Below, piece by piece: positions 14,176 through 40,939 of a DNA stretch of 64,000 bases; positions within the stretch are counted from its first letter, which is position 1; the number at the start of each line of letters is the position of its first letter. A program made the position numbers and the translations under genes. The DNA is from a virus, in IMG/VR virus record IMGVR_UViG_3300032291_003679, positions 62,001 to 126,000 of that record. One strand, written 5' to 3'. The notes under the pieces are model-generated. The model was not told where the DNA came from, ran no database searches, and saw nothing but the letters and a program-made list of their open reading frames with translations.

Positions 14176-14179
14176 CGTT

Positions 14180-14638: not shown

Positions 14639-14643
14639 TTTAG

Positions 14644-14719
14644 GCGTCGGTGGCCAAATGGATAAGGCAACAGACTTCTAATCTGTCGATTGCAGGTTCG
14701 AATCCTGCCCGACGCGCCA
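14644..14719 (+). tRNA. tRNA-Arg (anticodon TCT)
   Basis: A 76-base cloverleaf with acceptor GCGTCGG (14644-14650) pairing with CCGACGC (14709-14715), discriminator G, and an encoded CCA end. The anticodon arm CAGACTTCTAATCTG carries TCT, reading AGA codons. The T arm has the canonical GGTTCGAATCC. It is a full-length, phage-borne tRNA, so it may raise AGA decoding for AGA-using phage genes. There is no adjacent integrase to suggest an attachment site. Confidence 0.95.
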
Positions 14720-19164: not shown

Positions 19165-19834
19165 TTTTTACATCTTTTCGTGCCTTGTCAATGCGCGACA
19201 AAGTGGTTTTACCTGAGCCATAACTGTCTTCAGTGTTTAAATTGGACAAAAGTCGCGCACGTCGAGAAACTCTTCTTTTTGCTTTTGTTTTTTTCGCAGT
19301 TTTTCTTATAAAACCATCACCAAAAGAATCTCTAAGAATTTCTTCTTCGACGTGACTAAATGAGAACTTTGGATTTTGAACAATTCTCCCAAGAGGTTGG
19401 TCGAATAATACCTTTCCTGTATTTATTCTGTTTAAAAATTCACTTCTTCTGCTCGATGTTTTAAACGCAGCAGCCTTGAAAGCGATTACATTGATTTTGT
19501 CAACAGAATTAGAAAATTTATTTATCAAGATGCTTGAAACGTTTTTCTGATTTGACAATGATTTTTCGTGAAAGAAGCCAGCATAAGCAAAAGATTTTTG
19601 CCTTAGTTTTTTCTCTGAACTTACAGCCTCTTCTTTCCCAGTTTTTTCAAAAAACCCGGTAAACATAAAGCCGTCTGGAATGGTCGTGGATATGTTGTTT
19701 GAGTCAAAGTCAAAATCATTAATAATTGATTTACCAAACTCCGTAATTGACTTAACTTGAATATTTCCATTCTGTTCAGTCGCCATAACATGAGGCATTC
19801 CGCCGAATGCATCTTTTACAAATCCTATTTTCAT
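19154..19834 (-). CDS. Unknown head-block protein, 226 residues
   Basis: Not recognised. The N-terminal 120 residues look globular and beta-rich (MKIGFVKDAFGGMPHVMA, IPDGFMFTGFF). The C-terminal 60 are very basic (RKTAKKTKAKRRVSRRARLL) and probably disordered. Its ATG overlaps the stop of the larger neighbour (ATGA, 19831-19834). Position among capsid genes and the charged tail suggest a virion or DNA-contacting protein; that is inference only. Confidence 0.6.
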   Translation of the reverse strand: MKIGFVKDAFGGMPHVMATEQNGNIQVKSITEFGKSIINDFDFDSNNISTTIPDGFMFTGFFEKTGKEEAVSSEKKLRQKSFAYAGFFHEKSLSNQKNVSSILINKFSNSVDKINVIAFKAAAFKTSSRRSEFLNRINTGKVLFDQPLGRIVQNPKFSFSHVEEEILRDSFGDGFIRKTAKKTKAKRRVSRRARLLSNLNTEDSYGSGKTTLSRIDKARKDVKNGR

Positions 19835-22498: not shown

Positions 22499-23003
22499 CT
22501 TTTTGCTCCTCTATTTCCCGTAGAAGACTCATTGCTTTCCATGCAAAATCTCGTTCTTCGGCTGTTTTAAACTTGTAAATACTTGTATCCAACTTTACCA
22601 TTCCATCGCAACATGACTTTGTAAGCATTTGCTGTTCAATGTTTTCGGAAATAAATGATTTAACTGCCCTTTTTGTTTTGTCTAGTTTTCTTTTGTTTTT
22701 TCCGAGTGATGAGTTTGTCGGCATTGACTCAAGCATCGAGTCTTTTATCGGCCTTGTTTTAGTTATGAAGGTCTCATACCATGCTCCAGAGGTTGAATCT
22801 TTGGGCGCATCCCATAAAAATCTTTGAAAAGGGGTTGTGCGAAGTTTTCTAAACCCTCTTGTAGTGCTGGATATCTGTATTATGTTGGCCCTGATAGATG
22901 TGCCATCGGGGCGCTCTATTACTGCATCTTTTTCTCCAGGACCAGCCTCAATGTCGTAGTAGACGCGGCTGTCATTGAGTAGACCCACGATTATTGACTT
23001 CAT
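22488..23003 (-). CDS. Unknown head-block protein, 171 residues
   Basis: Not recognised. The N-terminal 60 residues are beta-rich (MKSIIVGLLNDSRVYYDIE, SIRANIIQISS). A basic middle follows (KNKRKLDKTKRAVKSF), then LTKSCCDGMVKLDTSIYKF and a C-terminal helix (ERDFAWKAMSLLREIEEQK). The SCCDG pair echoes dicysteines in four neighbouring proteins. ATG overlaps the giant gene's stop (ATGA, 23000-23003). Confidence 0.6.
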   Translation of the reverse strand: MKSIIVGLLNDSRVYYDIEAGPGEKDAVIERPDGTSIRANIIQISSTTRGFRKLRTTPFQRFLWDAPKDSTSGAWYETFITKTRPIKDSMLESMPTNSSLGKNKRKLDKTKRAVKSFISENIEQQMLTKSCCDGMVKLDTSIYKFKTAEERDFAWKAMSLLREIEEQKDVN

Positions 23004-26000
23004 AGACGACCCCCGTAGGTAGAGGTGATTCTTGGCTTGCTTGACTTTTTCATGTCCTTAAGCATTTCTTTAGCCATTGCGATTATTTCGCTAGATATTG
23101 ATTTTGCAAGAACTGATTCGACAGACTCTCCCTTTCCTGCCGTTTTAGAATGAGAGCGTGGGTCTTCTATGTTAAATCCACGCGGATGAGCAAATTTCAC
23201 GTTATTGAATCCGCGCTCTGAAAAGCTGTTTTTTATTTTTTGAGAAGCTCTATAATTTCTGAGCATCGCCATGCTTTCACTATTCATCATCTGACCGCCA
23301 CCAATAGAGTAGAAGTACTCAATTTCTTCTGGGGAAAATCCAGCGGCGCGCAATCTTTCGGCAATTGTTTTTGTGTTAACGATGTCGCTAATGTCTTCTT
23401 TTTCTGCTTCTTGTTCTATTTTTTTGAAAGGAACGTTTACTTGCTCAATGTCTGCCATGTCGAACCCACCAAGTATCTGGGCTTCAAATGGCTCACGAGA
23501 TGAACCTTCTGGAAGATTGGAATCAAAAGAGTTAGCCAGTTTTCCTTTTTTACCACGAGTAGCGTTGATGTTAGAAAAATCATTATTCAAAGACGCTGAA
23601 AGAAGGTTCATAAAAGCCTCCTGGCGCGTCTTTTCCCCATTTACACCGTCAGCGTTGAGAATGGCATCGGCCACGTCTTCACGATTGCGTGAATTAAGCC
23701 TCACTGGCCTGTGTGCAGTGCTAAGTGAATTTCCTCGACCGTAAGCAACTCGTTCCGAAACTCCCGGGCGAAGAACTATCTCCATGTCCCCAAGAGCGGT
23801 GAGTCCGTCACCCACGACATCTTGGTCGCCAATTTCAAACACAGCATCTGGCCTTAGATTCCCGGAGCCGTCTTTCATAACATCTTTTCGTTTGCTGTCA
23901 ATGTGTGATTTATGAATCAAATACCCGCTCACTGGTAGCTGGTCTGGTGCCACAGAATCCGGTATTCCGATACGCGCAAGGTATTCACGAACATAGTTCT
24001 CTGCAGATAACCCGACAGTGTCTCCGGATGGAGCCATGTCTGACTCCATGTCTCTTGTCTTTAATGTCGCCTGCGAGCGCCTAATCTTCGCCAGTCTTCC
24101 CATGTTGGCTCTTCCGCTAGACAGGGAGTTGCTTCTCTCTATGTCTGCAGCACGAATAATTTCGTCAAGTTGTCGTTCGCGCTCGCTAGAGATAGCGCTT
24201 GTTCTTCTTGTTTCAACCAAGCTTTGACGAACTTTTAGCGTTTGCGAGTATTCTGCATCATTTCTAAGACCAACGGAGCCAAGCTGTATAAAGTCACCTT
24301 CACTGTATTTTTCGTCAATGAGTCTTGGGCCGTTTTCAATTAAAAAAGCTTCGATAGCATCAATTTCTTCATTAGAAATATCTTCAATTCCCTGTGCTCC
24401 TGGAAGTCTCCCTTCTACCCAGTCATTCTCCGCCCCCAGCTTCGCCACCTTGATTCCCCACACATCTTGGAAAACCTTTCCGAGCGTCAGCCCTTCAACA
24501 ATGTCTGTTTGAACTTCATTTATGTTTAGTGGCATTTGAAGTTCTTCTGGCAGCGAGCGATTGGCTACAATCAGCGCCCCCCATCTGTGATGGCCATCAA
24601 GGATGTATCCATCTTTGGTAGCAAGAATTGGCTGCATAAACCACTCTTTGTTCATTTCGTCGAGGAATAGCTTTTTAAACTCTTCTGCTGATACCCCAGG
24701 ATTAGCTTTTCGCACTGCTTCTGCTTTAGCAACTGCAACTTCTTGCATTGTTTGCGCCGTGCCGTCGACCTTGCTTGCAACCAACTGCTGTTGTGATGGG
24801 GCTGCCAGGCCAGGGGCAACCTGCTTGCGCCTTACCGCAGGGCCATTATCGGGGTCTTCAACCTTTATCATCTTATTAAGCCAATTAATAAAAGGTGTTT
24901 CTAAGTTTACTTCGACATCATTCCAGTTTGTATTTGCGTATAGCCACTGTTTTGCTTCATCAGAAAGACTTTCGTACGATTCCTCTCTGTGTTGTGCTGC
25001 TGTCTTTTCGCCAAGCTCATTTCCAATAGAATGTTTTTTTGCTATAAGCTTGTACAGCATTTTTGGCGTATCTTCATCAGAAAGTGGCTCTTTACCTTTT
25101 TGTGCACGCTCTAAATTTTCTTTTGCAATATCTTTATCAAGGTCGTCCGCAAATTCGACTTCTAGTTTTCTGTTTCTTTCAATTTTTCCTAATGGTTCAA
25201 ATTTTCCTGCAGCACGCCCGGCAACAAGGGCGCGGACTGCAGCAGTGTCGTGGCCCTTTGTTCTTCCGTTTGTTTGAGGCATTTTTTCTCTGTCGATGCC
25301 TATATGTCCAGAACACATAAGATTTTTTGTTGGGTCATAAAGGGCGCACAGGTCTGCTTGGTAGCTCCCCACGTAATCTTTTTCCATTTTTTTGATAGTT
25401 GCAGGGTCGTCAAAATCAAAATCTCTATTTTCATTCATGTATTTTGATTTGTATTGCTCCCACTTCCAGTGGCCATTTTTTATATGGTCTTTAGCAATGT
25501 TTTTTACTTCATCTTCAAAAACTTTTTGTGCCTGTTCCGTTAGGCGAATGTCTTGCTCTTTTACTTCAACGTGATGACCAAGCATCATCATTGCAATAGC
25601 TGTTGGAACATCGTCTACTTCGTAAAGGTTTGGGTGTTTTTCACTTATTGAGAGTCGTGCTGACCGCCGCGCCAACCCGCCAAACATTTGGTTAATCTCG
25701 TCCTGGGTCATGTCGTCTATGTTTTTCCCATCTTCAATAACTTTATTGAAGATGTCTAACGCTTTTGTGGCGACTTCTTTTTCCTGGTTTCTACGAATTT
25801 TCAAGTTTTCTTGAGAATCTATAATTCTCCCCGAAGAAAGAGACCGCGATGCTCTTTGTTGGGGTGAAATGGAAGCCAATCTTTCCGCGCGACGTGATGT
25901 TCTTAGGTCTTCATCAGATGCGCTAGAAAAAGGGGAACGTATTCCAGCCCCAGATGAAAGACGCTCTATATCTTCATCTGTTGCTCTTACTCTGACTCTT

Positions 26001-29000
26001 CTGTCAAACCCTTCGTGCATTCTGTAGGCGGTCTCAGAAGCCCTTACTATTAAAAGCTCTTCTGGGGTCTCCGCAATTAGCTTTGCCACAGCTGGATGGA
26101 TATCTCCACGAGAAATGCTTCCGTCGCCTCTTCCGCCACCTAGTGCATCTTTTACGTTTCTTACGGTCGAGGACATGGAGGTGTTTCTTGAATTTGTTCT
26201 TTCTGGTCTTGTAGCAGGCTTGCCTAGAGTGTCTCCACTGGAAAGTGTGGTTCTTCCGCTCGAAAGATGCGGTGGAACTTCATCAAAACCTTCACCAAAT
26301 GAGCCACCAGCATCTATTATTTCATCAACCGAAACGCGGCTTGCGGTCACCGTCGCGTCGTCATAGTCGCTTCTAGGTCCAGGGAAGGTATCTCCAGAAG
26401 CGCGACGCTCAGTTACATACTTGTCGACCATCGCTTGTATTTTTTTGCCGTGGCTCTGCGCCCAGATTGCATCTGTTTTGTTCTTTGAAAGATTTTCTGC
26501 CATTGAGTCAACAACTTGAACAGTATCTTTTTGGTAAGAAATTTCAGCTCTTATCGTTCCGTCAGCGTCTCGTCCAATGATTCTTATCTTCCCAGGAGGG
26601 GCAACGAATTTCTGCTCGGTATCTCCGCCTGTAGTTGGAAACAATCCACGGTCGCCTTCGCGAACGGAAAGAATGACGCGTCGAGGCGTTCTTCCAGTTT
26701 TGGGGTCTTTTGTCCCTCGCGCTGGCATGTCTGTTTTTACGGTTCTGCTGGTAATTACTCGGCCGGAAACAAACTGTTCTAGGTCAATCTCTCTGCCTTC
26801 AACCTTGCCCTTAAGTTTGGATGGGTCAAAATCAATAATTGCTTCTATGTCAAATGGGTCAGCAACGGAAGTTTTATCTATCGCCTCCATGGTTGGTATC
26901 AGCAGTTTTTCTACTTGCTGAACAACGTCGCCTTCTGCGGAGGACATTGGGTCAATTTCTAGACCCAAGCGCTTGAGGCGTGCATTTCTCTTATTTATTG
27001 CGCGTCCAGCACGTGTCTGAATAACTGGGTCAAGCATTTTGCCTACGTCAGATTCAGAAACATCGCCCAACTCTTTCATGGCCTTTTTCTGCTCTGCGTT
27101 AGCTTTTACTCTTCTTCTTTCGCGTGCGCCATGGTCGGCTGCATCTTTAGCGTTCTTAAATTTTTTCTTCGGCTTGGGTGGTGGACTGATTATGTCAGTT
27201 ATTTTTTTGTCTAATTCTTTTTTGATTTGAGCTTTTGTTCTCTTGTCGCCAGAAGATTTAAGATTTTCAATGTATTGGTCACGAATGACTTCTATCTCGT
27301 CAGCAAGTTTTCTAAATTCGTCAGATGCTGGGTCGAGCGTAGAAAGACGCACTTCTTCATCTACAAGTTTCTGTACTATTTTCTTTTCGGGCATCGCCTT
27401 GATGCGCTCACGAAGGTCGTCTAGGTCAGCTTTGCGGGCGATTTCTGCCATTTCGCCCGGGTCTAGAAGACCTTCGCTTTCCCGAATAGAACGAACTGTT
27501 TCGTCAAATCTTTTCTTTTCTCCACTAGCGCCGACGCCGAATTTTTTACGCCAAATCTTGCTGGCTTCATCATATTTTTTGCTATGAAAATCGAGCTCTC
27601 TTTGGGCATCTCTAATTGCTTCGGATTTCGCTCTCTCCATAAAAATTCGTTCATCGTCAGCAAGTGACTCATCTATTTCGAATTCTTTATAACTTTCAAG
27701 TCTTCTAGAAGCGTCGTCTCTTTGTGAAGCTATTATTGCTGCCTCTGAGAACATGTCATCTTCTGCGAGTTCGGCAAAACTTGTTTTAAATTCTGCCAAC
27801 TCTGCTCTTAGCTCTGATGCGAGTCGAACATCCCTATCCTCAAGAGTTTCTTCAATTACGTCATCTGGCATATCTTCTGGAACAATTGTGTCGTCTGGAA
27901 TGCGAAAGACATCATCGAGCGATTCTAGGTCTGCCGTATCGTCGCTTTCAGCGCGAGCTCTTGAGGATTTAGAGAAAGATAATCCGTCCATCCATTCGAG
28001 AGCAGCGTCGACGTCTTCGCCGTAGATTATTCCACGTTCACGAAGTGCCCATATCTCAGCAGCGGCTTCCAGTGCCCACACTTCCGAGCCTTCGGTGTAT
28101 ACGTCTCTTGGATACGACCCAGCAAGTGGAGCAATTTTCTTAAGTCTCTCCATTGCGCTGTCTAGCGCTTCAAGGTTAATTGAGTCCGCAACGTCGGTCA
28201 TAATTGACATAATGTCGGAGCCGCTTAATGCATAAATTGAATCGACGTTACGAGAACCAACGACTACCCCATCCTTGATGATAGGAACACGTATGAAGCC
28301 CATCTCGTCTATCTCGTCTTGAATTTTTTCTATGAACACCTGCGCTTGCTTGTGGTGCGCTATTTCGTGAATCATAATGTGGCTAGAAAAGCCGTAAACT
28401 CCATCTAGCAGGCCTGCCATGCCTCTTGCCGAATAGTCGGCGTTGACCAAAAAGTCAGCTACAGCAAGACGACCTTCAGCTTCGCTTCTTGCTCCAACTG
28501 CAGAAATTGCGAGCCTTTCGTTTGGAAGCATGTCTGGCAACATTGTTTCTTGATTAGCAAGAATCATCCCCATGTTGACATGAATCTGGGTGCGAAGTTC
28601 TCCAGGAGTCTTCCCCATCACAGGATTTCCATCCCTATCAAGAACGGGGGTTCCGTCAGGCTTTAGTCGTGGACTAATTGACGGCGCATCCCTGTATACG
28701 GATGTTCCTGCTTCATCTCCTGAATCGAATCTGTAAACTATCCGCCCAATGCCACGCATGCTTTCTGGGTCTTTTACAAATTGGTCTATAAGTGATTCAA
28801 ACAAAGCTCTTTGTGTGTACTTGTACCTGTCAAAGTCAGACTTAAGAAGTCTGCTCTTTTCTTCGTTTGAAAGACCGCGCCATCCGGGAATGCTTTCTAG
28901 TCTTACTTCACAAAATCTTTCTATTTCTGAATCAAGTAGTAAAGCTGCGCCTTCACCAGAAGCATTGAGGACCTCTATGTCCCAGCCAGCTCTCCCACCG

Positions 29001-30175
29001 GAATCAACATGCATCTGCTGCAGGGCCCTAACTGCCAGTATTGCTGCATCTGGGTCTTCAGAATCAATACCAAGCGCGTCATATATGCGCGCTGCTTCCG
29101 CTTTCTGACGAGCAATATCATCTTGCCCGCGGATTGCACCGTTCTTGAAGAGACGCAAGTTCTCCTCAACAGGGATATCTCTCCACGATGGTGGCTTAAA
29201 TCTGTCACCAGAAATACTGTCCCAGTATGCAACTCGACCAAGAAAGGCTGGGTCTGCTATTTGCCTGGTTGACTTGCTGTATTGGTCGTTGTATAAAAAA
29301 TTAAAGAATGTTTTTGCATTGTTTCTTAGGCCCTCATATTGGCCTTCTGATTCAAGCTTTGCTGCTTGTCGTGCGGCAAATCGGGCGAACTTTGTTGGGC
29401 TAAAACCAAAACAGTTAGAGCCAGTAGCGTCAGTGAACTGGTTTGCAGCAGGCGTTCCAGGAGGGCATCTAAATTTGTTATTTTCATCGCGAAGAATGCC
29501 AAATACTGCAGCAGCACGTGAAAGCAGAGAGCCGCCTGGGACTCTCGATTCAAGACTGCGTCCAGGAAGCATCTTTTTCTCTATAAGGTTGTCTTTATAT
29601 TTACGAATAGACTTTTGTTTTTCTTCGTAACTAAGACCAGCGGCCATGCCAAAGGGGTCGACTATTTTTTCCGACTCTTGTATAACTTCGTCCGTCTTCG
29701 GATTTACTTTGTACTTGCTGAGCTTAATTGATGGCTTCGACCTATACATCTGAAGCATCTCTTCAAAGCTTGTTGGCGCATTTTTGTCTGGCTTAATCCA
29801 TCCAACGTTTGGCTTTGCGTCCATTCCTTCGCGCGACTGAAATGATGGACTAATGACGAGGGTGGAGCCAGGCTCCCATGTTGCCGCCCCTTCCCATCGA
29901 TAACCAAACTCGTTTGACTCCACGCCAGGCAAAGTGCCGCCCGTAAAGTCTCGTTTCTTTCCATCTGTATCTTCGTAGGTTTTTACCCTTATGCCGAACC
30001 CTTCCGTTATAGCTTTTACGGCTATATCGGCCTGAAGGCGGTTTGTTTCGATGGAAGCATTAATCGACTGCTTGAATCTGACAGCCTTTTCATTGAATCC
30101 GCCGCAGCAAGAGGTCGGCACCATGAGTCGTGCTGCAACTATTACTCTTTCCCGCGTTATTGGGGTATTCGCCAT
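23000..30175 (-). CDS. Giant LSSG-linked polyprotein B: zinc peptidase-like and ParB-like domains
   Basis: 2,391 residues, in the head block 14 bases after the scaffold-like gene. Visible in order: an N-terminal region with TSCCGGF; the module FRCPPGTPAANQFTD...SNC near 236; a zincin motif HEIAHH at 603 inside a helical domain; a long charged coiled-coil section (about 780-1050); an LSSG-rich linker zone (sites 1304, 1311, 1406, 1446); a ParB/sulfiredoxin-like domain with DGYILDGHHRWGA around 1860; a last LSSG at 2018; and an unassigned C-terminal domain with SERVAYGRGNSL. LSSG sites separate the recognisable parts as in polyproteins A and C. I infer head-packaged cargo cut by the prohead protease. 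The zincin and ParB-like calls are by motif; substrates are unknown. Confidence 0.85.
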   Translation of the reverse strand: MANTPITRERVIVAARLMVPTSCCGGFNEKAVRFKQSINASIETNRLQADIAVKAITEGFGIRVKTYEDTDGKKRDFTGGTLPGVESNEFGYRWEGAATWEPGSTLVISPSFQSREGMDAKPNVGWIKPDKNAPTSFEEMLQMYRSKPSIKLSKYKVNPKTDEVIQESEKIVDPFGMAAGLSYEEKQKSIRKYKDNLIEKKMLPGRSLESRVPGGSLLSRAAAVFGILRDENNKFRCPPGTPAANQFTDATGSNCFGFSPTKFARFAARQAAKLESEGQYEGLRNNAKTFFNFLYNDQYSKSTRQIADPAFLGRVAYWDSISGDRFKPPSWRDIPVEENLRLFKNGAIRGQDDIARQKAEAARIYDALGIDSEDPDAAILAVRALQQMHVDSGGRAGWDIEVLNASGEGAALLLDSEIERFCEVRLESIPGWRGLSNEEKSRLLKSDFDRYKYTQRALFESLIDQFVKDPESMRGIGRIVYRFDSGDEAGTSVYRDAPSISPRLKPDGTPVLDRDGNPVMGKTPGELRTQIHVNMGMILANQETMLPDMLPNERLAISAVGARSEAEGRLAVADFLVNADYSARGMAGLLDGVYGFSSHIMIHEIAHHKQAQVFIEKIQDEIDEMGFIRVPIIKDGVVVGSRNVDSIYALSGSDIMSIMTDVADSINLEALDSAMERLKKIAPLAGSYPRDVYTEGSEVWALEAAAEIWALRERGIIYGEDVDAALEWMDGLSFSKSSRARAESDDTADLESLDDVFRIPDDTIVPEDMPDDVIEETLEDRDVRLASELRAELAEFKTSFAELAEDDMFSEAAIIASQRDDASRRLESYKEFEIDESLADDERIFMERAKSEAIRDAQRELDFHSKKYDEASKIWRKKFGVGASGEKKRFDETVRSIRESEGLLDPGEMAEIARKADLDDLRERIKAMPEKKIVQKLVDEEVRLSTLDPASDEFRKLADEIEVIRDQYIENLKSSGDKRTKAQIKKELDKKITDIISPPPKPKKKFKNAKDAADHGARERRRVKANAEQKKAMKELGDVSESDVGKMLDPVIQTRAGRAINKRNARLKRLGLEIDPMSSAEGDVVQQVEKLLIPTMEAIDKTSVADPFDIEAIIDFDPSKLKGKVEGREIDLEQFVSGRVITSRTVKTDMPARGTKDPKTGRTPRRVILSVREGDRGLFPTTGGDTEQKFVAPPGKIRIIGRDADGTIRAEISYQKDTVQVVDSMAENLSKNKTDAIWAQSHGKKIQAMVDKYVTERRASGDTFPGPRSDYDDATVTASRVSVDEIIDAGGSFGEGFDEVPPHLSSGRTTLSSGDTLGKPATRPERTNSRNTSMSSTVRNVKDALGGGRGDGSISRGDIHPAVAKLIAETPEELLIVRASETAYRMHEGFDRRVRVRATDEDIERLSSGAGIRSPFSSASDEDLRTSRRAERLASISPQQRASRSLSSGRIIDSQENLKIRRNQEKEVATKALDIFNKVIEDGKNIDDMTQDEINQMFGGLARRSARLSISEKHPNLYEVDDVPTAIAMMMLGHHVEVKEQDIRLTEQAQKVFEDEVKNIAKDHIKNGHWKWEQYKSKYMNENRDFDFDDPATIKKMEKDYVGSYQADLCALYDPTKNLMCSGHIGIDREKMPQTNGRTKGHDTAAVRALVAGRAAGKFEPLGKIERNRKLEVEFADDLDKDIAKENLERAQKGKEPLSDEDTPKMLYKLIAKKHSIGNELGEKTAAQHREESYESLSDEAKQWLYANTNWNDVEVNLETPFINWLNKMIKVEDPDNGPAVRRKQVAPGLAAPSQQQLVASKVDGTAQTMQEVAVAKAEAVRKANPGVSAEEFKKLFLDEMNKEWFMQPILATKDGYILDGHHRWGALIVANRSLPEELQMPLNINEVQTDIVEGLTLGKVFQDVWGIKVAKLGAENDWVEGRLPGAQGIEDISNEEIDAIEAFLIENGPRLIDEKYSEGDFIQLGSVGLRNDAEYSQTLKVRQSLVETRRTSAISSERERQLDEIIRAADIERSNSLSSGRANMGRLAKIRRSQATLKTRDMESDMAPSGDTVGLSAENYVREYLARIGIPDSVAPDQLPVSGYLIHKSHIDSKRKDVMKDGSGNLRPDAVFEIGDQDVVGDGLTALGDMEIVLRPGVSERVAYGRGNSLSTAHRPVRLNSRNREDVADAILNADGVNGEKTRQEAFMNLLSASLNNDFSNINATRGKKGKLANSFDSNLPEGSSREPFEAQILGGFDMADIEQVNVPFKKIEQEAEKEDISDIVNTKTIAERLRAAGFSPEEIEYFYSIGGGQMMNSESMAMLRNYRASQKIKNSFSERGFNNVKFAHPRGFNIEDPRSHSKTAGKGESVESVLAKSISSEIIAMAKEMLKDMKKSSKPRITSTYGGRL

Positions 30176-31876: not shown

Positions 31877-34800
31877 TTATTTATCTGGATTCTTTGAATT
31901 TTTCTTGTCCACCCAAAGGCTATTGCCGGATTCGACTCTCTCTCTTGCTGTTCTTAACTGCTCGTCGCTAAATATGTCATCAATTGTGTATCTTGTTCCA
32001 AACATCTCATTAAATCTGTTAACCATTGACTGCAGTTCACTACCCGAGAATCGTGGCTCGTTACCCTTACTTGGGGTCCACACCGAACCCCTGTTCTGCG
32101 TGGCCGCTTCTAGGGTGTACGCCAGGTCGGTAGCTTCGATTATTTTGTTGCGATTTTCTCTGGTATTAAGTTTTGGAAAACTCTTGTCGATAAATTCGTA
32201 AAGAGCCTCGTAGACGGCGTATTTTGGCCTCTTCATCTCCGTGTCGAACCTCTCGCCAGTATCAGATTCTTTCCATACCGATTTTGCGTCTGGAAGAACT
32301 CCATTGCGAATCATTTGAGCAATTGTTGCAGTAGGAATTCCTTTTCTTCTCCACGCATCATTGATTCCGATGGAATCCGTTCCAAAGGCTGATGAAAGTC
32401 GCTCCTGTAGACCCTTCTTCCATTCTTTTCTATCAATTCCAAGATAATCAAGAAGCGAATCAAGGTCGAAGTCTTCTATCGCGGTCTTGTCATCTCTGAT
32501 TATTTCCCCAGAATCATCTATAGAGCCTTCTTCTGGCAGAAGCATGTCAAAAGATTCACCATAAAGGTCTATCTCTGCCTCAGAATCTCCTCTTGTTGCA
32601 CTGTCTGGATAAAAACGGCCCGAGGCTCTAAATTTAGATGTTTCACTTACTTCTCCAAGTTGAACATATTCCTCAGGGGTCATTGATTGATTTTCTTCAA
32701 CATCAAACCAATATGGGAACGCATCTTTGCCAAACGTTTCAATAATGAATCTGTCACGCATATTTGCGCGGCCAGCATTTTCAGATGCCAAATCAATTTG
32801 CGAAATGTCTTCTATGATGTCGCCCTCTGGGGACTGCACTACTTTTTTGGCTTCATTTGCAGAAACTGGAGCAAAGTATCTCCACGCTGAAAGCTCTTTC
32901 TGCTTACCGAGTTCAGCAATCAAGAGGCGCACAGCGTCGTGGTTGATTCCAGCATCTGGTTCTCTCATCTTTGCTGCGTTAGCAGGGCTCAACCCAAGCA
33001 TCTTAGAGATTTCATCCCTTGTTGCTGGTCGTGACTGTGTCCACCTGATTGTCGAACCGTCTTCGGTATTAAAATTTTCTCTTGAAGTAAATTCTGTTGG
33101 GATTCTTATCGTGTCAGCAAGCTTGTCAATAGAGAGCATCCACGTTTCGGCCGACGGATTCTCGTTTTTGTTGTTGTCACTAATTTTGCCAATACGCACA
33201 CGTTCTTGACGTGCTTTCATCGCTTTGCCAACGTTCTGCATTGCGCCGCGAGTGCGTGATTGACGCACCGGCACTGAAAGCGAGTCGTCATCTATGTCAA
33301 TCGCTATGCCGCGCTTACGTACGCCGTCCCATGCCTGCATGGCGAACTGAAGTGCTTGTCTGTTTTTGCTGGAGTTTGGGTCTCCGTTTATTCTCAATCC
33401 GGCGAGCTGTTGTGCGCTTAGGCTACCTCCGTAGATATTGCTTCCAGAAATTTTTCTGCTTCTACGTGTCAGGCGTCTGCTTCCATCGGTGGTTGCTCCA
33501 CTAGACAGTGTCATTCCTAGAACGTCGTCGATGTCACCTTCGTCAACTACTTCATCATCGTCGTCACCTTCTGGAAGTACGAAATCGTCTTCTCCAGGTT
33601 TTCCATCTTCACCGAATTCGTAATCTTCTTCATCAATTTCAGTAATGATGCCTTCAACTTCTTCAGAATCACCATCATCATCAACTGGTACAGGAACCAC
33701 AATAACTTCGTCGTCTTTTTCATCAGTAGGACGAGCTGGGAATCCATTTTCCAGTTCTGAAAGCGACATGGCATTAATTGCCTTGTACCAATCTGGAAGA
33801 GGAATCCCGTCCTTATCACCGAAGGCTCCTCTATCAAGCTCTGGTGGGATATGCCCATCTACAACAGCTTGCTTCATTGCATCACGTATTGCTTTTGTTC
33901 GCTCGTCATGCAAGTAATAAAAGAAACCAGCATTGCCTGGGTCTAACATTTCTTTTGCGCGGGAGAATGCAACATGGACTAGGTTTCCCTCTTCCATGAA
34001 GCCAATACCAGCTTCGCCTTGCGCCAAGTTGCTTGGAAGATTCTGGGACGGGTCTCCCATGTCTTCTGCTACTGCGACGAATCGAGACTCACGACCCTTA
34101 GAGAGCTGCATTGTTGTGATTTCAACATCTCCGCCCCCAGTCTTGGCCGCATCGCGCACTGCTTGAGCAATTTGTGCAAGTATCTCAGTGCTTTCTTCTA
34201 GGGTTTCACCTTTAATAACAAAACCGTCATAATGGCGACGCCCAGCCTGTCCTTCAATTCTAAAGCCACGCTCAGCTTCCTGCATTACTTCAATTTTGTC
34301 CTGAAGTCCAAGCTGAATGATTGCTTTTTCAAGGTCCCTGCGGTATCTGCCGTTGTTTGAGCCGCGACCTCCTGGTGGAGTATTTACCTTTTGACTTCCG
34401 TCTGGCCTGTCTATTGGTCGACCGGTGTCCACGCCGTCGCCGGTTATTATTATTCGACCAGTTGCTTTTCCTGGGGATTTGTCACTACCCCCTTCAATTT
34501 CAAGAGCAGCATAAACAGCTTGCTTAAACGTGTCGTCAACGTTGGGAATAATGAAAAGCTTTTCTCTCTGTGTTGATTTAGCTTTCCATGCGGACTTTTG
34601 TCTTCCGGCTATTTCTCTTATTTGGTCAACACCAACATTCCAGTTATCGAGTTCCATCGTCTTGCGTTCTGGAATTAAAACTGCTGGGATTATGTCAATT
34701 TTTTCCTTGCCCTTGGCTTTGCCTTTTTCGTGAACCCCTTTAACGACGGTTCCCTGAAGGAGTTCTAGCATTCCCTTTGTGCCAAGAGCTTTGCCTGTTG

Positions 34801-37800
34801 GGTCATTCTTGGGTGGCTTCATTATCAAGTTATAAGCAGAACGTGCTTGCTGATATCTTGCTTGACTAAGAGCCTTTTGTAGCGCGCCAGTTGTCCAGAC
34901 GTTGCCTAGCCACCCAGATGCCTGTGGTTTACCGAATCGTGCAACATAATCTCGCTGCTGTTGTGGTGTTCGGTTAATAAAATCAAGATGCTTCGTAAAG
35001 GTAACTAGCTGCTCCCACTTGGATGCTGGAATAATTACTTCCGGCAACTTTGGCATGCCGCGTTCGTCTTTCTTAACAGCCCTGCTGTTAATGACGATAT
35101 TAATAAACTTAAGAGCTTCGTTGATTATTTCGGCATTTGTTCTACACAAAATCATCGTCGGCAGATTTCCCTTGTCGGCCTCTTCGTATCTGTCGACTAT
35201 TCTTCCTTCCTTTGGCGCGTAAAGTTTATCTCTTAATTCCTTAAGGGCTTTATCTTGCTCTCTTCTGCTTAGGGATGAAATATTTAGCTTCTCCGTGGGG
35301 GAAGAATATTTTTTCTCAATTTTAGCAATCAGGAGCTCTCGGGTTGCATCATCAAGTTCTTCAACAGGGAAATTTCCGCGTCTGTCTTCTTTTGGTAACA
35401 ATGGGTCAAACTGTCTATTAATGACCGTTTGTGCCTGACCCTTAACATGCTTCCATGCAACTGGTTGTGGAACCCCTTGCTTCGTTAGATGCAGGTTCTG
35501 TCCACCCAAAACAAGGTTTGTCGCATGACCGATAACTCCGCCGTATCTAAATGACTCAGTAATGCTCTGCGCATACTCCGGCTGTAGTGACTCAAGAATA
35601 TTTTTTGAATCACGGAATGCGTAAACTGCTTGCCTGTCGTCGCCAACAATTATAATTGGAAGTTTATCCCTATTTCTATCAAGGACAGTTTCCAGAACTT
35701 CGTTAGTATCTTGCGATTCGTCAACCATAAAGGCACCGAGAGGATTCTCTGGTGTCGCTACTTTTTTGCGTAAAGTTGCTCTGGACGTTTTCCCGGCCTT
35801 GTCCGAAATCGTCGTAACAATCCACTCTTCTCCATCGGCAACATACGTATCGCCTTCACTAAGAGATGACGGAATGGCGACTTTTGCTCTTGTCTGATTG
35901 CTTGAATGGGTAATTAAGCCTGGGTCTGTTCTTAGGTCTGGGTCCGTCAGCATCCAAAGTTTTGCTATTAGTTCCATTGATGGCATAACGTTAGAGTCAC
36001 CATCTGAAATTTGGTCAACTATCGACTGGACCGAATCAATCCATAGCTTTGGAATTGCGCTTTCCGGCAAAATGCTATCTACTCCGCCGGGCTTTTTCCC
36101 ATGGCCGCGCGGCGTATCTAAGTCTTCTATGGCCTTTTTGGGCTGCATAAAATGTTGGGCAGTAACTTTTTCTTCTTTCGAAAGCCCCCATCTTCTGAGG
36201 GCGTTGGCAAGAAGGTCACCCATTTCAGAAAACTCTACGAACTCACCGTTTGGAAGTTCGAATCCATCAACTTCTACTTCAACTTTTGTTTTTTTGCCTT
36301 TTTCATTAAGGACTGGCTTGCCTGTCGTGTCTACGACAGTTACCATCTTTTTTTTCTTTTTTTGGTTTGGCCACTTGTTTATTTCAAGATGTTTTACAAA
36401 ATCTTCACCCGACTCAAGCACTACCCATCCCAATGCCTCTAGGCCTGGGTCTTCGCCTACAAATGTTTCTATTGTTCCATCAAAAGTTTCCCTGACAAAG
36501 TTTTTACCAATCATCTTTTCGACGTCTGGTGTTTCTTCTTCGCTTTTCCACTTCGGATTACGTCGCATGGACTTTTTGCTATCGCGGGATTTGTTTAGCA
36601 TTACCAGCTTCCGGCGCATACCTTTTCCATACCTGGCGTCACCTTGGCCAAGGCGTAGCGACCACTGCCACAATTTGTCCGTTGTTGCAATACCAGTGTT
36701 TTTGGGGAATTCAACTTCAGCTTCTAATTGGTTTTTAGTGTTAAACACCGTGTAGAAAATGTTGCCAGTTTTATTAGCTTTTGCTAAGTCTGCTACCGTT
36801 TCTTCAATCTTGTCTGCTGGTATTTTGCTGAAATCAACACCGTAAGTATCTGACAGATACGCTAATTGTTCAGCCCTGCGGACATCGCCTTCTGGCCAGA
36901 GTTCAAACTCTCTCTGAAGGGCCCACGCAATGCTCTTTAGTGTTGTTGTTTTGCCCGTTCCTGCACCAGCAAGAACGCTGAAAACTGCTGGATTTCTTTT
37001 ATGTATAAGCGACATTGCTACAGCTATGATGTCACGCTGTTCGTTAGTTGGTTCGTCCTTAAGGGCGAACGCAAGCCCAAGAGAGACTTTCTCGTCTATC
37101 CGTTCAATGTCTGCGACACCTTTTTGTTTGCCCTTTGGTGTTCCACTAATCGGGCCATCTTGTTTGCCGCTAGCTAACGCACCAGACGGAGTTATAACAA
37201 CGCCGTCCTTGTTTTTGGCTGGGAGCCCTTCGAGTGACCGAGCGAGTTCTCTTTCGGAAGGGCTTGATGGAACAAAATCGTCAAAAGCTTCGGAGTCAAG
37301 AAGGTCTTCTAGCGGTCCTACTATTGTCGTTGTCGGTTTGATTGGTTCAATGTCTTCGTATCCTGCAAGCATTGGCACTTCATACCATGAGTCCTCTTTG
37401 CCCTTGCGCTCATCGTCAGGGATGCCGGCAAGACGACGCATTGTTGCCGAACGGTTAAGCAAGTAGTCGTTTGCTTGCTGAGCCTGAACGATTGCTCTAT
37501 GAATTGCGAGAGGGTCTGAACGTAGCTTCTTTAGCCAGCTATTTAGGTACAAAAGATGGTCTTCGCGTACTGTTGGCTCCAGACCCATTGACCCCATTGC
37601 GAATGCTGAACCTATTTCTGCAATCAATTCTTCGAATGCGTACTGGTCATCGCCGAATTCACGGCCCAGAGTTCTGTTTAGTCTTGTTGGGTGAGATGTC
37701 CAGTGAATTGTCTCATGCATTGCCGTCCCATAGAATGCGAGGGCATTCTCAAACTGTTCAAATGCTGGCATGTGAATCTTGTCAGTGGATGGACGATAAA

Positions 37801-40800
37801 AGGCTTGCTGGCCTTTTGATTCGACAAATGCTGGACCTATTTCTTGGATTACGTTTTCAATATCCTGCAACCGCTGCTCTTGGTTGATGTCAGTATCTTC
37901 AACTTCGTAATACTTGTTAGGAAGATTAGAAACATCATCAACGTTGTATACGGTTTGAACAACGTAATAGCGACCCATCTGGATTGCTTGTCCATCAGCG
38001 TTTATTACAGTTCTGCCATCACGTGGCACAAGAATAGAAACGCCGCGAGCACTAGCTCCAGGCTTTAATTTTCCGCCTAGTTTTTCCCATTGCGTTCTGC
38101 CTGCCCATCTGTTTGTTTTGTAGCCGCGACTTTGCGCAGTAAGCAAAAGGGCTAGCTGATTCATGCCCTGGTAAACACGATTTTTAGTTGGGTTACGCGC
38201 AAAGATTTCCGGGTTGCGCCACGGCATCTTCCATTGTTTTGTTTTGTCAGGGTTATCAATTAAGTCTTGCAGGACTTCGATAATCTCCTCGGCCATTCTC
38301 TTGTACATTTCCGCAAGGATTGGAGAGTCTTCTGGTATTTCTGCTTTATCTGGAAGTTTTCCGGATGAAAGTGCAGCACTAATTGGGCCGTCAAATTTTC
38401 TTATCTCGTTGTTGGTTCTCTTGTTTTTTGACTTATTTAGATATTTTGCGTAACCGCTAGAAAGCTTTTGCTCAGGGTCGTCTGGTATTGCTACGAACTC
38501 TGGCTTTCGGCCGCGGGCAAGTTCGAGGTTCTCTCTATCCTGGTCTTGCTGCATGATGGACGTGACAAGGTCCCTATCAGGAGGGATGCGAACGAACCCT
38601 GGCTTTCGGCCGCGGGCAAGCGGAGTGCTTCTGTCGATGACTTCTGGCTTCTCGTCTGGTATCTCTACAAATTCTGGCTTTCGGCCTTGGGAAAGACGCG
38701 TATTTCTATCGAGAACCTGTGGTTGCTTCGGCTTTTTCTTAGGCTTATCTGCCTCCGCTATTTCGTCTTCAGCCATCTTCTCGACACGATTCATATACTT
38801 GTCAAGGTCAGCAATAGCCTTCTTTAGCTTCTTTATCTGGTCAGCGTCAGTAGCGCCGTCCAGCACTCCCTGTAGTTCGTCTCTTTGAGATTCTGCGGCA
38901 CCGTATTTTTCGGCTGAATCAACATCTGGGTCGTCTATTCGCGGAAGGTCTAGCGGGATTTTCCCTGAAGATAGACGCTCGGTCCGAGCAATAGTTTCTG
39001 ATTCTGGCTTAGAAAGCTGACGGGGTGACGGCTTTGGGTTACGAATTGAGCCAGGACCATCTGGAGTTGGGTCCGGAGTAGCAAGTGGGACGCCACGAAG
39101 GAATAGACCTTCACCGACGACTCCGTTGAGGTTTGCGTCACGAGCTGTGAATGGGTCAAAGTCTTCTGCCCCGATTGAGGTAAAGAACCTTCCACGTGAA
39201 CGACCGCCTCCAATGTTAGGACGGTCGATTAGGCGACTGCCGATAGCGCGTCCGAGGCGGTAACCAGCCGCCTTCCACTCTATGTCATTCTCACCTAGAG
39301 ATTTTTTTTTTAGATTATCAACAGCCGTATCGATGGCTTCAATCAGCTCAAAGCTGACACCAGAGGTGATGACGATGCCGTTGACATCCACAAAGGAGTC
39401 GACATTGTGATAGTCAAAGATTGGGTCTAGAGCTTGTTTTACTTGAAAGGCAAACTGAGGCACCACTGGAAGCAAGTATGGCTTCTGGTCGAAATTGTCA
39501 TCTTTTGTTGAGCCAAACTCGCTGAGAAGCTTAAACTTACGACGCTTCTTGCGGCGTCTCCCAACAACTCCACGGAGTGCTGCAACTGCAAGTTCTCCTG
39601 GATACTTTACTTCCAGGTCAGCAATGTAGTCCTCTTCGTTGAATTCTTCGTCAAGTTCATAAGTCTTCTTAGATGCTGTGTCGCCGGTGACTACTCCCTT
39701 GGGAATTACGGCAAATCTGCACTTGCCTTCTGGCTCGACATCCATGGCGATTATCTTGCAAGAATTTCCACCTTGGTAGAAGACGCAGTTTGCGCACTTA
39801 ACGCCAATTGCAGCAACTGGGTTTTCAGCTGCAGGCTTATAGCCAGCCCAAACGCCGTCAGAATCCTCGTTGAAACGACCGTGGCGCTTAACAATCTTAA
39901 GAAGAGCATCTCTTAAGTCTGTTTCTTCTTGGTCGAGATTGTTTTTGTCAAACTCTGGCTGATTTCTTTCATCATCCATGTCTTCGTATTGGACGGGGGG
40001 CAGAGGAACCATACGGTTGCCGTTTTCTCCAGGCTTAATAGCAATTGGCATCGCCGGCATTTGTGATGGGCGAATCACTCTTTGTGGCTCATTTGCAGGG
40101 ACACCAGGTGCCAGCATTGGCATATTCTGCATTGGCGCAACTGGCTTGCGTGCTGGCATCACCACAATCTGCTGTGGTGGACCAAACATGTAGCGTCCGC
40201 GGTTCCCACTAAATCCGCACTTGTAGCGACCGACTTCACCATTGTCCATTCTGCGGGCAAATGTAATTTCGTCGTCGTTTACGTCCATCAGTGAAACTTT
40301 TGCACCAAGGATTGTAGCTAGTTGCTTTTCTATTTCAGCCTTGTCGATGGCGTCTTCGTCGTCTTCCATCATCGCCATCATGACGCCACTGGCGTTGTCG
40401 TCAGACTTAACTGAAATTGTTCCAGTAAGTTGATTTGCTCCATGTAAAACGGGCGAGACCTCGTAAAGTTCAAGTTCGTAAATAACGTTTGCTTGAGACT
40501 TTTGGTCAAACTGGGCCCGAAGGGTCTTGTATCCGATTGACCATTCCTGCTCTTCTCCAAAGAAAGCAACCATGGCAAAAGCTTCCCGACCTTTTTCTGA
40601 ATTAAGGTTGAATTGCACACGGGCGAACAGGCCACCAATGCCAGCCATTTTCATCTTAAGTGGCAAGCGATTGTCCGTATTTGGAACTTCGTAAATCTCT
40701 AGAACTTTACCGATTGGGTCATTCCAGCTATGTCCCCAGACAACTCGTGGCTTACGGCGTTGGAGGCTCTTGGCGAATGCTCCACTTGCAACAATGTCAC

Positions 40801-40939
40801 CAACGGAGTCTTTGTTACCAATACCAGCAACGAAACACTCAACTATGCCCTGAGCCTCATCAAGGTTGATGTTTCCGCCCTTCGAAGAGAGCGAGTTACC
40901 AAGCGAAGTTGACTTGTATTCGAATAGTTCAGATGGCAT
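31877..40939 (-). CDS. Giant polyprotein C: S78 prohead protease fused to ArdC-like and UvrD-type helicase cargo
   Basis: 3,020 residues. Residues 1-175 are an HK97-type prohead protease (family S78): RVVWGHSWNDPIGKV with His70 and EEQEWSIGYKT with Ser134. A Cys module follows (VKCANCVFYQGGNSC, about 390), then a Ca-loop-like DANLNGVVGEG (about 605). Next is a linker zone with LSSG at 656, LSQG 749, LARG 774 and 807, and LSSG 826 and 857. An ArdC-like antirestriction region (about 880-1120) has its zincin HETIHW at 1075. After LASG at 1255 comes an SF1A UvrD/Rep helicase (GAGTGKTT from 1325, DESQDT from 1740, AFSRAKEML near 2320). LSSG at 2478 precedes an unassigned C-terminal domain. Portal lies upstream, scaffold and capsid downstream. 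Protease and helicase are certain; self-processing of the fusion is inferred. Confidence 0.92.
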   Translation of the reverse strand: MPSELFEYKSTSLGNSLSSKGGNINLDEAQGIVECFVAGIGNKDSVGDIVASGAFAKSLQRRKPRVVWGHSWNDPIGKVLEIYEVPNTDNRLPLKMKMAGIGGLFARVQFNLNSEKGREAFAMVAFFGEEQEWSIGYKTLRAQFDQKSQANVIYELELYEVSPVLHGANQLTGTISVKSDDNASGVMMAMMEDDEDAIDKAEIEKQLATILGAKVSLMDVNDDEITFARRMDNGEVGRYKCGFSGNRGRYMFGPPQQIVVMPARKPVAPMQNMPMLAPGVPANEPQRVIRPSQMPAMPIAIKPGENGNRMVPLPPVQYEDMDDERNQPEFDKNNLDQEETDLRDALLKIVKRHGRFNEDSDGVWAGYKPAAENPVAAIGVKCANCVFYQGGNSCKIIAMDVEPEGKCRFAVIPKGVVTGDTASKKTYELDEEFNEEDYIADLEVKYPGELAVAALRGVVGRRRKKRRKFKLLSEFGSTKDDNFDQKPYLLPVVPQFAFQVKQALDPIFDYHNVDSFVDVNGIVITSGVSFELIEAIDTAVDNLKKKSLGENDIEWKAAGYRLGRAIGSRLIDRPNIGGGRSRGRFFTSIGAEDFDPFTARDANLNGVVGEGLFLRGVPLATPDPTPDGPGSIRNPKPSPRQLSKPESETIARTERLSSGKIPLDLPRIDDPDVDSAEKYGAAESQRDELQGVLDGATDADQIKKLKKAIADLDKYMNRVEKMAEDEIAEADKPKKKPKQPQVLDRNTRLSQGRKPEFVEIPDEKPEVIDRSTPLARGRKPGFVRIPPDRDLVTSIMQQDQDRENLELARGRKPEFVAIPDDPEQKLSSGYAKYLNKSKNKRTNNEIRKFDGPISAALSSGKLPDKAEIPEDSPILAEMYKRMAEEIIEVLQDLIDNPDKTKQWKMPWRNPEIFARNPTKNRVYQGMNQLALLLTAQSRGYKTNRWAGRTQWEKLGGKLKPGASARGVSILVPRDGRTVINADGQAIQMGRYYVVQTVYNVDDVSNLPNKYYEVEDTDINQEQRLQDIENVIQEIGPAFVESKGQQAFYRPSTDKIHMPAFEQFENALAFYGTAMHETIHWTSHPTRLNRTLGREFGDDQYAFEELIAEIGSAFAMGSMGLEPTVREDHLLYLNSWLKKLRSDPLAIHRAIVQAQQANDYLLNRSATMRRLAGIPDDERKGKEDSWYEVPMLAGYEDIEPIKPTTTIVGPLEDLLDSEAFDDFVPSSPSERELARSLEGLPAKNKDGVVITPSGALASGKQDGPISGTPKGKQKGVADIERIDEKVSLGLAFALKDEPTNEQRDIIAVAMSLIHKRNPAVFSVLAGAGTGKTTTLKSIAWALQREFELWPEGDVRRAEQLAYLSDTYGVDFSKIPADKIEETVADLAKANKTGNIFYTVFNTKNQLEAEVEFPKNTGIATTDKLWQWSLRLGQGDARYGKGMRRKLVMLNKSRDSKKSMRRNPKWKSEEETPDVEKMIGKNFVRETFDGTIETFVGEDPGLEALGWVVLESGEDFVKHLEINKWPNQKKKKKMVTVVDTTGKPVLNEKGKKTKVEVEVDGFELPNGEFVEFSEMGDLLANALRRWGLSKEEKVTAQHFMQPKKAIEDLDTPRGHGKKPGGVDSILPESAIPKLWIDSVQSIVDQISDGDSNVMPSMELIAKLWMLTDPDLRTDPGLITHSSNQTRAKVAIPSSLSEGDTYVADGEEWIVTTISDKAGKTSRATLRKKVATPENPLGAFMVDESQDTNEVLETVLDRNRDKLPIIIVGDDRQAVYAFRDSKNILESLQPEYAQSITESFRYGGVIGHATNLVLGGQNLHLTKQGVPQPVAWKHVKGQAQTVINRQFDPLLPKEDRRGNFPVEELDDATRELLIAKIEKKYSSPTEKLNISSLSRREQDKALKELRDKLYAPKEGRIVDRYEEADKGNLPTMILCRTNAEIINEALKFINIVINSRAVKKDERGMPKLPEVIIPASKWEQLVTFTKHLDFINRTPQQQRDYVARFGKPQASGWLGNVWTTGALQKALSQARYQQARSAYNLIMKPPKNDPTGKALGTKGMLELLQGTVVKGVHEKGKAKGKEKIDIIPAVLIPERKTMELDNWNVGVDQIREIAGRQKSAWKAKSTQREKLFIIPNVDDTFKQAVYAALEIEGGSDKSPGKATGRIIITGDGVDTGRPIDRPDGSQKVNTPPGGRGSNNGRYRRDLEKAIIQLGLQDKIEVMQEAERGFRIEGQAGRRHYDGFVIKGETLEESTEILAQIAQAVRDAAKTGGGDVEITTMQLSKGRESRFVAVAEDMGDPSQNLPSNLAQGEAGIGFMEEGNLVHVAFSRAKEMLDPGNAGFFYYLHDERTKAIRDAMKQAVVDGHIPPELDRGAFGDKDGIPLPDWYKAINAMSLSELENGFPARPTDEKDDEVIVVPVPVDDDGDSEEVEGIITEIDEEDYEFGEDGKPGEDDFVLPEGDDDDEVVDEGDIDDVLGMTLSSGATTDGSRRLTRRSRKISGSNIYGGSLSAQQLAGLRINGDPNSSKNRQALQFAMQAWDGVRKRGIAIDIDDDSLSVPVRQSRTRGAMQNVGKAMKARQERVRIGKISDNNKNENPSAETWMLSIDKLADTIRIPTEFTSRENFNTEDGSTIRWTQSRPATRDEISKMLGLSPANAAKMREPDAGINHDAVRLLIAELGKQKELSAWRYFAPVSANEAKKVVQSPEGDIIEDISQIDLASENAGRANMRDRFIIETFGKDAFPYWFDVEENQSMTPEEYVQLGEVSETSKFRASGRFYPDSATRGDSEAEIDLYGESFDMLLPEEGSIDDSGEIIRDDKTAIEDFDLDSLLDYLGIDRKEWKKGLQERLSSAFGTDSIGINDAWRRKGIPTATIAQMIRNGVLPDAKSVWKESDTGERFDTEMKRPKYAVYEALYEFIDKSFPKLNTRENRNKIIEATDLAYTLEAATQNRGSVWTPSKGNEPRFSGSELQSMVNRFNEMFGTRYTIDDIFSDEQLRTARERVESGNSLWVDKKNSKNPDK
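38464..38695 (-). repeat. Tandem GRKPxFVxIP protein repeats in polyprotein C
   Basis: Three near copies of L-x-x-G-RKP-x-FV-x-IP follow one another: LSQGRKPEFVEIPDE, LARGRKPGFVRIPPD and LARGRKPEFVAIPDD (about residues 749, 774 and 807), the last followed by LSSGY at 826. The DNA copies are also similar (CTTTCGGCC stretches), so they arose by local duplication. Each includes a degenerate form of the LSSG site. Confidence 0.85.

What the first reader, a model, noticed from the sequence alone, without database searches (positions are those of the whole stretch)
31877..40939. Prohead protease fused to an ArdC-like antirestriction region and a UvrD helicase
Seen: protease residues (His70, Ser134), ArdC-like segment with HETIHW at 1075, Walker A from 1325, DESQDT from 1740, LSSG at 656-857 and 2478, LASG at 1255. 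Known: ArdC proteins block restriction, and P1 packages DarB, a very large protein with a helicase domain, as an antirestriction factor. Inference: the phage makes its protease as part of the same chain as its cargo, so protease and cargo enter the head in a fixed ratio and the cargo is released by cutting in cis or trans.
Basis: partly seen in the sequence, partly recalled or inferred. Interest (0 to 1): 0.85.

Follow-up and report, generated by a model that had tools for sequence, protein, structure and literature searches.

The report
Phage protease fused to cut-apart cargo
A lake-phage gene appears to make a head-maturation protease both alone and, depending on a slippery run of ten A's, fused to a chain of packaged proteins (an ArdC-type antirestriction protein, a helicase and others) separated by short cut-here motifs, a retrovirus-like polyprotein strategy not described before for phages as far as I could find.

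Summary
The fusion is real: one 3020-aa ORF on the minus strand with an S78 prohead protease, ArdC-N plus zincin, a UvrD helicase and a conserved C-terminal domain of no known fold. LSSG/LASG lie at the domain boundaries. The same motif saturates two further giant proteins of this 158-kb phage (21 sites in the three, 0.7 expected) and recurs in the tape measure, so it must act in trans. Relatives keep the modules but swap the motif genome-wide: FSSG, GSKSxT, STRS, SSRSxR or GMRS. Homologous modules break and reshuffle at these motifs. This is best explained as a protease cleavage code that evolves in concert with its substrates.

New: a conserved A10 run (window 39302-39311) at codons 543-546, with stops within five codons in both other frames, in 42 of 52 fused genes. 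Stand-alone proteases of relatives end there. Programmed slippage should therefore make a ~547-aa protease plus the fusion, in a Gag/Gag-Pol-like ratio.

Its mechanism is partly supported: the ratio is probably set by slippage, and cutting must also work in trans. Cleavage, slippage and packaging are inferred; no protein data exist.

The parts
31877..40939 (-). Polyprotein A, 3020 aa: protease + leader + ArdC + UvrD helicase + C-terminal domain
40415..40846 (-). Peptidase_S78 prohead protease domain, residues 32-175 (His70 at 40730-40732, Ser134 at 40538-40540)
   Evidence: both residues invariant in relatives
39302..39311 (-). A10 run (T10 on + strand), codons 543-546; -1A gives a 547-aa product, +1A a 549-aa product; proposed programmed slippage site
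38996..39286 (-). Post-slip leader domain, residues 552-648, homologous to the N-terminus (22-126) of polyprotein C
38963..38974 (-). LSSG site, residues 656-659
38684..38695 (-). Degenerate site LSQG, residues 749-752 (similar LARG at 38609-38620 and 38510-38521)
38453..38464 (-). LSSG site, residues 826-829
38360..38371 (-). LSSG site, residues 857-860, just before ArdC; S-S-G conserved in a hypervariable linker
   Evidence: segment residues S219-G221 invariant or nearly so
38036..38311 (-). ArdcN domain, residues 877-968
37493..37861 (-). MPTase-PolyVal zincin domain, residues 1027-1149 (HETIHW at 1075)
37166..37177 (-). LASG site, residues 1255-1258, between ArdC and helicase
33941..37063 (-). 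UvrD-type helicase region, about residues 1293-2333
33497..33508 (-). LSSG site, residues 2478-2481, between helicase and C-terminal domain
31880..33496 (-). Conserved C-terminal module, residues 2482-3020; predicted fold without a PDB match
   Evidence: (pLDDT 79.8)
23000..30175 (-). Polyprotein B, 2391 aa, no Pfam match; LSSG at residues 1304, 1311, 1406, 1446, 2018
1..6984 (-). Polyprotein C, N-terminal 2328 of 3479 aa (runs off the window; genome 58545-68984): leader, RNase_T exonuclease, weak GNAT match and others; 11 LSSG sites in the whole chain
57907..57918 (+). LSSG at residue 36 of the tape measure protein (57802-62607), conserved position in LSSG-class relatives; second site at 59620-59631

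Best explanation
Polyprotein A is a prohead-protease gene extended into a cargo polyprotein. RNA polymerase (or the ribosome) slips at an A10 run at the end of the protease part, so part of the product is an ordinary ~547-aa protease and part is the 3020-aa fusion. The protease part carries the fusion into the assembling head together with polyproteins B and C. During head maturation the protease cuts at [LFM]-[SA]-S-G in linkers, in cis in A and in trans in B, C and probably the tape measure. This releases ArdC/zincin, UvrD helicase, an exonuclease and other proteins as separate virion proteins for delivery with the DNA. Because one protease reads dozens of sites, its motif changes only genome-wide, which yields a different code in each lineage. 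Shown: architecture, motif enrichment and placement, concerted motif switching, module breaks at motifs, A10 conservation with dual stops, matching C-termini of stand-alone proteases. Inferred: cleavage by this protease, slippage in vivo, packaging, injection.
For: (1) Motif enrichment in nine genomes: polyproteins 163 observed versus 8.4 expected, tape measures 18 versus 2.5, all other proteins 43 versus 31 (sums). All synonymous codons are used at the motif, so selection acts on protein, not DNA. (2) Concerted switching: the genome-by-motif table is nearly diagonal, e.g. G024 GSKSxT 29/0.2 and LSSG 0; G027 STRS 37/0.7; G026 SRSx[RK] 21/0.7; G030 G[ML]RS 20/0.4; G001 FSSG 16/0.2 (discovery). 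The ArdC module is bounded by whichever motif the genome uses in G000, G022, G024 and G026. (3) Breaks between homologous modules lie within 15 aa of a site in 27% of cases versus 6.8% (maximum 10.8%) under circular shift; C modules are permuted at sites between G000 and G005. (4) A9-A11 at codons 480-680 in 42 of 52 distinct fused genes; stops at most 5 codons away in both shifted frames in 42 of 42 (null 8.8%); only 2 other A9+ runs in 292,860 nt. At the slip site KKK is AAAAAAAAA in 28 of 29 cases, elsewhere 1 of 74. A10 is the longest A/T homopolymer of the 158-kb genome. (5) Stand-alone proteases of G024, G027 and G028 end at the slip-site column. (6) The part after the slip begins with the leader found at the N-terminus of C. 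(7) Precedents: in T. thermophilus dnaX an in-frame A9 gives 50% short product (PMC1088944); prohead protease gp245 of SPN3US cuts ejection proteins at A-X-E (PMC10052503).
Against: No proteomics, N-termini or transcripts exist; all sequences are metagenomic. The major capsid protein lacks the class motif (only a loosely similar, class-independent LxxG[RK] at its presumed delta-domain junction). The tape measure is a tail protein, not obviously accessible to a prohead protease. The L-to-F switch is not matched by an obvious protease change. Ten of 52 fused genes lack the A run, including the LSSG genes L368, L372, L375, L376, L384 and L387, and G022 has no A10 run; slippage is not universal. 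Non-LSSG motifs were found post hoc. Protease residues that differ between classes (57, 141, 143) follow phylogeny and are only suggestive. Model of residues 1-660 is poor (pLDDT 50).
Confidence: 0.68

Rival explanations
1. The motif is a cleavage site, but for another protease (host enzyme or the zincin MPTase of the ArdC module), and the S78 protease only matures the capsid.
For: Major capsid protein lacks the class motif; zincins have been proposed to process polyvalent proteins (PMC5512222).
Against: Motif classes differ between related phages and map onto the S78 protease tree (25 changes versus 58.8 shuffled), hard to explain by a host enzyme; ArdC/zincin is not in the protease gene of several genomes that keep motifs (G026 and G024 carry it elsewhere, G027 shows none by this search).
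Confidence: 0.15
2. The motif is a non-cleaved linker or binding tag, for example a capsid-packaging or scaffold-docking signal repeated along cargo proteins.
For: Would also be trans-acting, genome-wide and lineage-specific; the tape measure motif is hard to link to a head protease.
Against: Position at module boundaries and at shuffling breakpoints and presence of a protease in the same chain favour cutting; a tag would not need to bound every module.
Confidence: 0.12
3. The A10 run is neutral or a conserved lysine tract; only the full fusion is made and the protease is freed solely by proteolysis.
For: Some fused genes have no A run; in-frame reading gives the fusion in nearly all genomes.
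Against: Homopolymer codon choice 28 of 29 at this site versus 1 of 74 elsewhere; dual stops 42 of 42 versus 8.8% null; flanking residues vary while the run stays; coincidence with stand-alone C-terminus.
Confidence: 0.15
4. The giant chain acts uncut as a polyvalent protein injected whole, like N4 virion RNA polymerase.
For: N4 vRNAP is packaged unprocessed (PMC5512222).
Against: Regular motif punctuation, N-terminal protease, and concerted motif change.
Confidence: 0.08

Closest known systems
Polyvalent proteins (Iyer et al. 2017, PMC5512222), including ArdC-N/MPTase proteins and P1 Dar proteins
   Same: Many unrelated domains in one phage chain; ArdC-N plus zincin; predicted delivery at infection; proposed processing by embedded peptidases.
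   Different: [quoted passage not shown] here it is N-terminal, and a defined, lineage-specific site code and a slippage site are present. No such code or slippage is described in the passages read.
Prohead protease processing of ejection proteins (SPN3US gp245, A-X-E; PMC10052503)
   Same: One prohead protease cuts many packaged proteins at a short motif.
   Different: gp245 is a separate protein and mostly removes N-terminal propeptides; here the protease is fused to cargo and sites separate many functional modules.
Retroviral Gag/Gag-Pol and T. thermophilus dnaX slippage (PMC5009743, PMC1088944)
   Same: Slippery run giving two lengths; in Gag-Pol a protease-containing polyprotein is packaged and then cut.
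   Different: As in dnaX, and unlike most retroviruses, the unshifted frame gives the long form; cargo is probable effectors rather than replicase; DNA phage.
Stand-alone S78 capsid maturation proteases of Gordonia and other phages
   Same: Same protease domain, about 42% identity.
   Different: Not fused to cargo in the record examined (Hanem, 454 aa).

Membership tests
Peptidase S78 / prohead protease | Domain match above curated cut-off with conserved catalytic His and Ser | tested here: met
   Pfam 44.1 bits versus cut-off 21; His70, Ser134 invariant
Peptidase S78 / prohead protease | Encoded in the head operon near portal and major capsid protein | tested here: met
   Portal 41071-43176, MCP 16978-18342
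Peptidase S78 / prohead protease | Cleaves the major capsid protein and other head proteins | not testable with these tools
   MCP lacks the class motif; no protein data
Polyvalent proteins | Several domains of unrelated activity in one chain incl. ArdC-N/MPTase | tested here: met
Polyvalent proteins | Assemblin-like peptidase, when present, at the C-terminus | tested here: not met
   N-terminal here (PMC5512222); an observed regularity of that set rather than a strict definition
Polyvalent proteins | Carried in virion and delivered to the host | not testable with these tools
   No virion protein data
Programmed slippage / frameshift (Gag-Pol or dnaX type) | Conserved homopolymer of 9 or more A in the coding frame, avoided elsewhere | tested here: met
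Programmed slippage / frameshift (Gag-Pol or dnaX type) | Alternative frame yields a defined shorter or longer product | tested here: met
   Stops at most 5 codons away in both frames, 42 of 42; matches stand-alone protease end
Programmed slippage / frameshift (Gag-Pol or dnaX type) | Both products detected | not testable with these tools
   No RNA or protein data
P1 DarB-like antirestriction protein | Methylase-helicase dyad | tested here: not met
   Helicase but no methylase domain in Pfam/PHROGs scans; definition of DarB from memory

The most novel reading that the evidence does not exclude
A widespread group of uncultured aquatic tailed phages uses a true polyprotein system: slippage sets the ratio of protease to protease-cargo fusion, three giant cargo chains are cut by that protease at a short code, cargo cassettes are swapped between chains at the cut sites, and each phage lineage has evolved its own protease-site code.
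Probability: 0.55. Interest if true: 0.92.

Novelty: new variant of a known kind. Interest (0 to 1): 0.86.

Why it matters
If true, DNA phages have evolved the retrovirus-like solution of packaging a protease and its cargo as one frameshift-controlled chain. It would turn many unannotatable giant phage ORFs into readable lists of mature virion proteins (cut at the lineage's motif), give a natural series of protease-site pairs for studying how a protease and dozens of sites change specificity together, and identify ArdC, a helicase, an exonuclease and other modules as probable virion-delivered early proteins.

Tried and rejected
Major capsid protein as carrier of the class motif: rejected; its LxxG[RK] near residue 118 is the same in all classes. 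DNA-level repeat behind LSSG: rejected, codons vary freely. Change of protease residue behind the L-to-F switch: none found. C-terminal domain: predicted fold has no PDB match. Structure of residues 1-660: too poor for a fold search, although confidence falls after the slip site. Cultured relative covering the fusion: none in 50,697 phage records; best coverage is about a quarter of the query. Host: genome contigs gave only three phage-like contigs in MAGs, so the host is not shown. DSL-LC01 (metagenome-assembled) has only a distant match. L029 and L050 looked like natural separate proteases but have one A too few in the run with the downstream frame intact. In G028 and G032 no site code was found.

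Full report
Observation. The reported ORF is on the minus strand, 31877-40939, 3020 aa. Pfam and PHROGs confirm an N-terminal S78 prohead protease, ArdC-N plus the polyvalent zincin, and a UvrD helicase. The catalytic His70 and Ser134 are invariant in relatives. LSSG/LASG occur at 656, 826, 857, 1255 and 2478, five against 0.14 expected. The window is bases 62001-126000 of a 158,021-bp virus record, G000.

The motif is not confined to this protein. In G000 it is concentrated in three giant proteins, here called A (the finding), B (23000-30175, minus) and C (3479 aa, reaching window 1-6984, minus), and at residues 36 and 607 of the tape measure. Over nine genomes the polyproteins hold 163 sites against 8.4 expected, the tape measures 18 against 2.5, and everything else 43 against 31 (sums). 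The extended consensus is S-x-[RSK]-[LFM]-[SA]-S-G-[ARK]; every synonymous codon is used, so the constraint is on the peptide.

Placement. In the relatives from viral contigs with a long enough protease ORF, the motif sits between the protease part and ArdC, between ArdC and the helicase, and between helicase and C-terminal domain, while protein and linker lengths vary. Around ArdC the linkers are nearly unalignable except for S-S-G. Across 53 giant proteins with three or more motifs, break points of homologous blocks lie within 15 aa of a motif in 27% of cases against 6.8% (maximum 10.8%) after circular shifts. In polyprotein C, blocks 1438-1881 and 1891-3010 of G000 are in swapped order in G005, with sites at the joints; the exonuclease block of C lies in the protease gene in G022, flanked by sites at 3136 and 3418. 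Modules between sites therefore behave as exchangeable cassettes. Cross-class breaks show the effect more weakly (12% within 15 aa).

Concerted switching. L059, L062 and their kin (G001) have mostly F in place of L, in all three chains and in the tape measure. More distant relatives found through the capsid protein use quite different motifs: GSKSxT in G024, STRS in G027, SRSx[RK] in G026, G[ML]RS in G030, each 20-37 times against less than one expected, with LSSG at or below chance. The ArdC module in G024 lies between GSKS sites at 191 and 573, and in G026 between SSRS sites at 1526 and 1875. Motif class follows the protease tree (25 changes against 58.8 shuffled; near copies inflate this). 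Many separate sites changing together is what a single trans-acting reader predicts; a protease encoded in the same chain is the simplest reader. Lining up the classes as [L/F/M/T/S]-[S/A/R/K]-S suggests, by analogy with A-X-E of SPN3US (P3-P2-P1), a cut after the second S or after G; this is inference.

Slippage site. Two contigs, L029 and L050, appeared to have a separate protease; both have one A too few in a homopolymer, with the downstream frame open. In the window this is A10 at 39302-39311 (codons 543-546, DNLKKKSLG), the longest A/T homopolymer of the genome. Of 52 distinct fused genes, 42 have an A9-A11 run at the same place, and in all 42 both shifted frames stop within five codons (null 8.8%); only two other A9+ runs exist in 292,860 nt of these genes. 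Lysine triplets elsewhere avoid the pure A form (1 of 74), whereas the slip site uses it in 28 of 29. Loss or gain of one A in the window gives products of 547 and 549 aa. Stand-alone proteases of G024, G027 and G028 end at this very column. The sequence after it begins with a ~95-aa domain that is also the N-terminus of polyprotein C (G022, left out of the profile, matches at 1.5e-14). So gene A looks like a complete protease gene joined, through a slippery run, to a complete C-like cargo polyprotein with its own leader. T. thermophilus dnaX, with an in-frame A9 and 50% short product, is the direct precedent; Gag-Pol is the functional analogy. A -1 ribosomal shift on A_AAA_AAA is equally compatible.

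Mechanism. Most likely the short protease is the ordinary prohead protease, and the fusion, at a slippage-set fraction, enters the head with B and C; maturation then cuts all chains. The shared leader of A and C may be a packaging signal (inference). ArdC proteins and the zincin are typical of proteins delivered early (PMC5512222), so a role in protecting incoming DNA is plausible but untested. The C-terminal module has a fairly confident predicted core (pLDDT 79.8) and no PDB relative.

Weak points. No protein or RNA data. The capsid protein lacks the motif, so its cut site must differ or the capsid is matured differently. The tape measure sites are unexplained for a head protease. Six LSSG-class fused genes and G022 lack the A run. 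Lineage motifs other than LSSG were discovered on the same data, though their excess survives any plausible correction for the number of patterns tried. In the L/F class protease residues 57/141/143 are K/R/Q in 43 of 43 (G022: K/N/K), against mostly E/[NQ]/[TSN] where the motif has R or K; this is suggestive but confounded by descent.

Comparison and novelty. It is a member of the S78 proteases by test, and a polyvalent protein by content, but differs from the published set in having its assemblin-type peptidase at the N-terminus, a site code, and a slippage site. Searches of open papers for phage polyproteins with prohead proteases returned the polyvalent-protein paper and nothing describing this arrangement; subscription papers were not searchable. 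I therefore rate it a new variant of a known kind, with high interest.

Noticed in passing
30190-31761 (-): A 523-aa strongly acidic protein lies between A and B in all relatives, with conserved ends, Cys clusters and a variable acidic middle; no Pfam or PHROG match. Possibly a scaffold.
   Followed up: partly
16978-18342 (-), residues about 115-125: Capsid protein has a near-invariant L-x-x-G-[RKAL] at the presumed delta-domain junction in diverged relatives; resembles the site loosely but does not follow the motif class.
   Followed up: partly
57802-62607 (+): Tape measure carries the class motif near residue 36 and near 600 in most LSSG-class genomes; why a tail protein should carry head-protease sites is unexplained.
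   Followed up: partly
23000-30175 and 19831-21861 (-): Polyprotein B and the 676-aa protein share a small Cys segment resembling C-P-x-G-x(n)-F-T-D-x(n)-C; B also has an HEIAHH zincin-like motif.
   Followed up: no
12250-14719 (+): A probable ribonucleotide reductase gene is followed by a small HNH-like ORF (14180-14638) and a tRNA-Arg(TCT) gene.
   Followed up: no
L368, L375, L384: Sister clade with G-LSSG sites and fused protease but no A run; how it makes free protease is unknown.
   Followed up: no
G032 (L283-L288) and L479-L553: A large set of relatives has a 524-595 aa stand-alone protease and no detectable site code; probably the state without polyproteins.
   Followed up: partly
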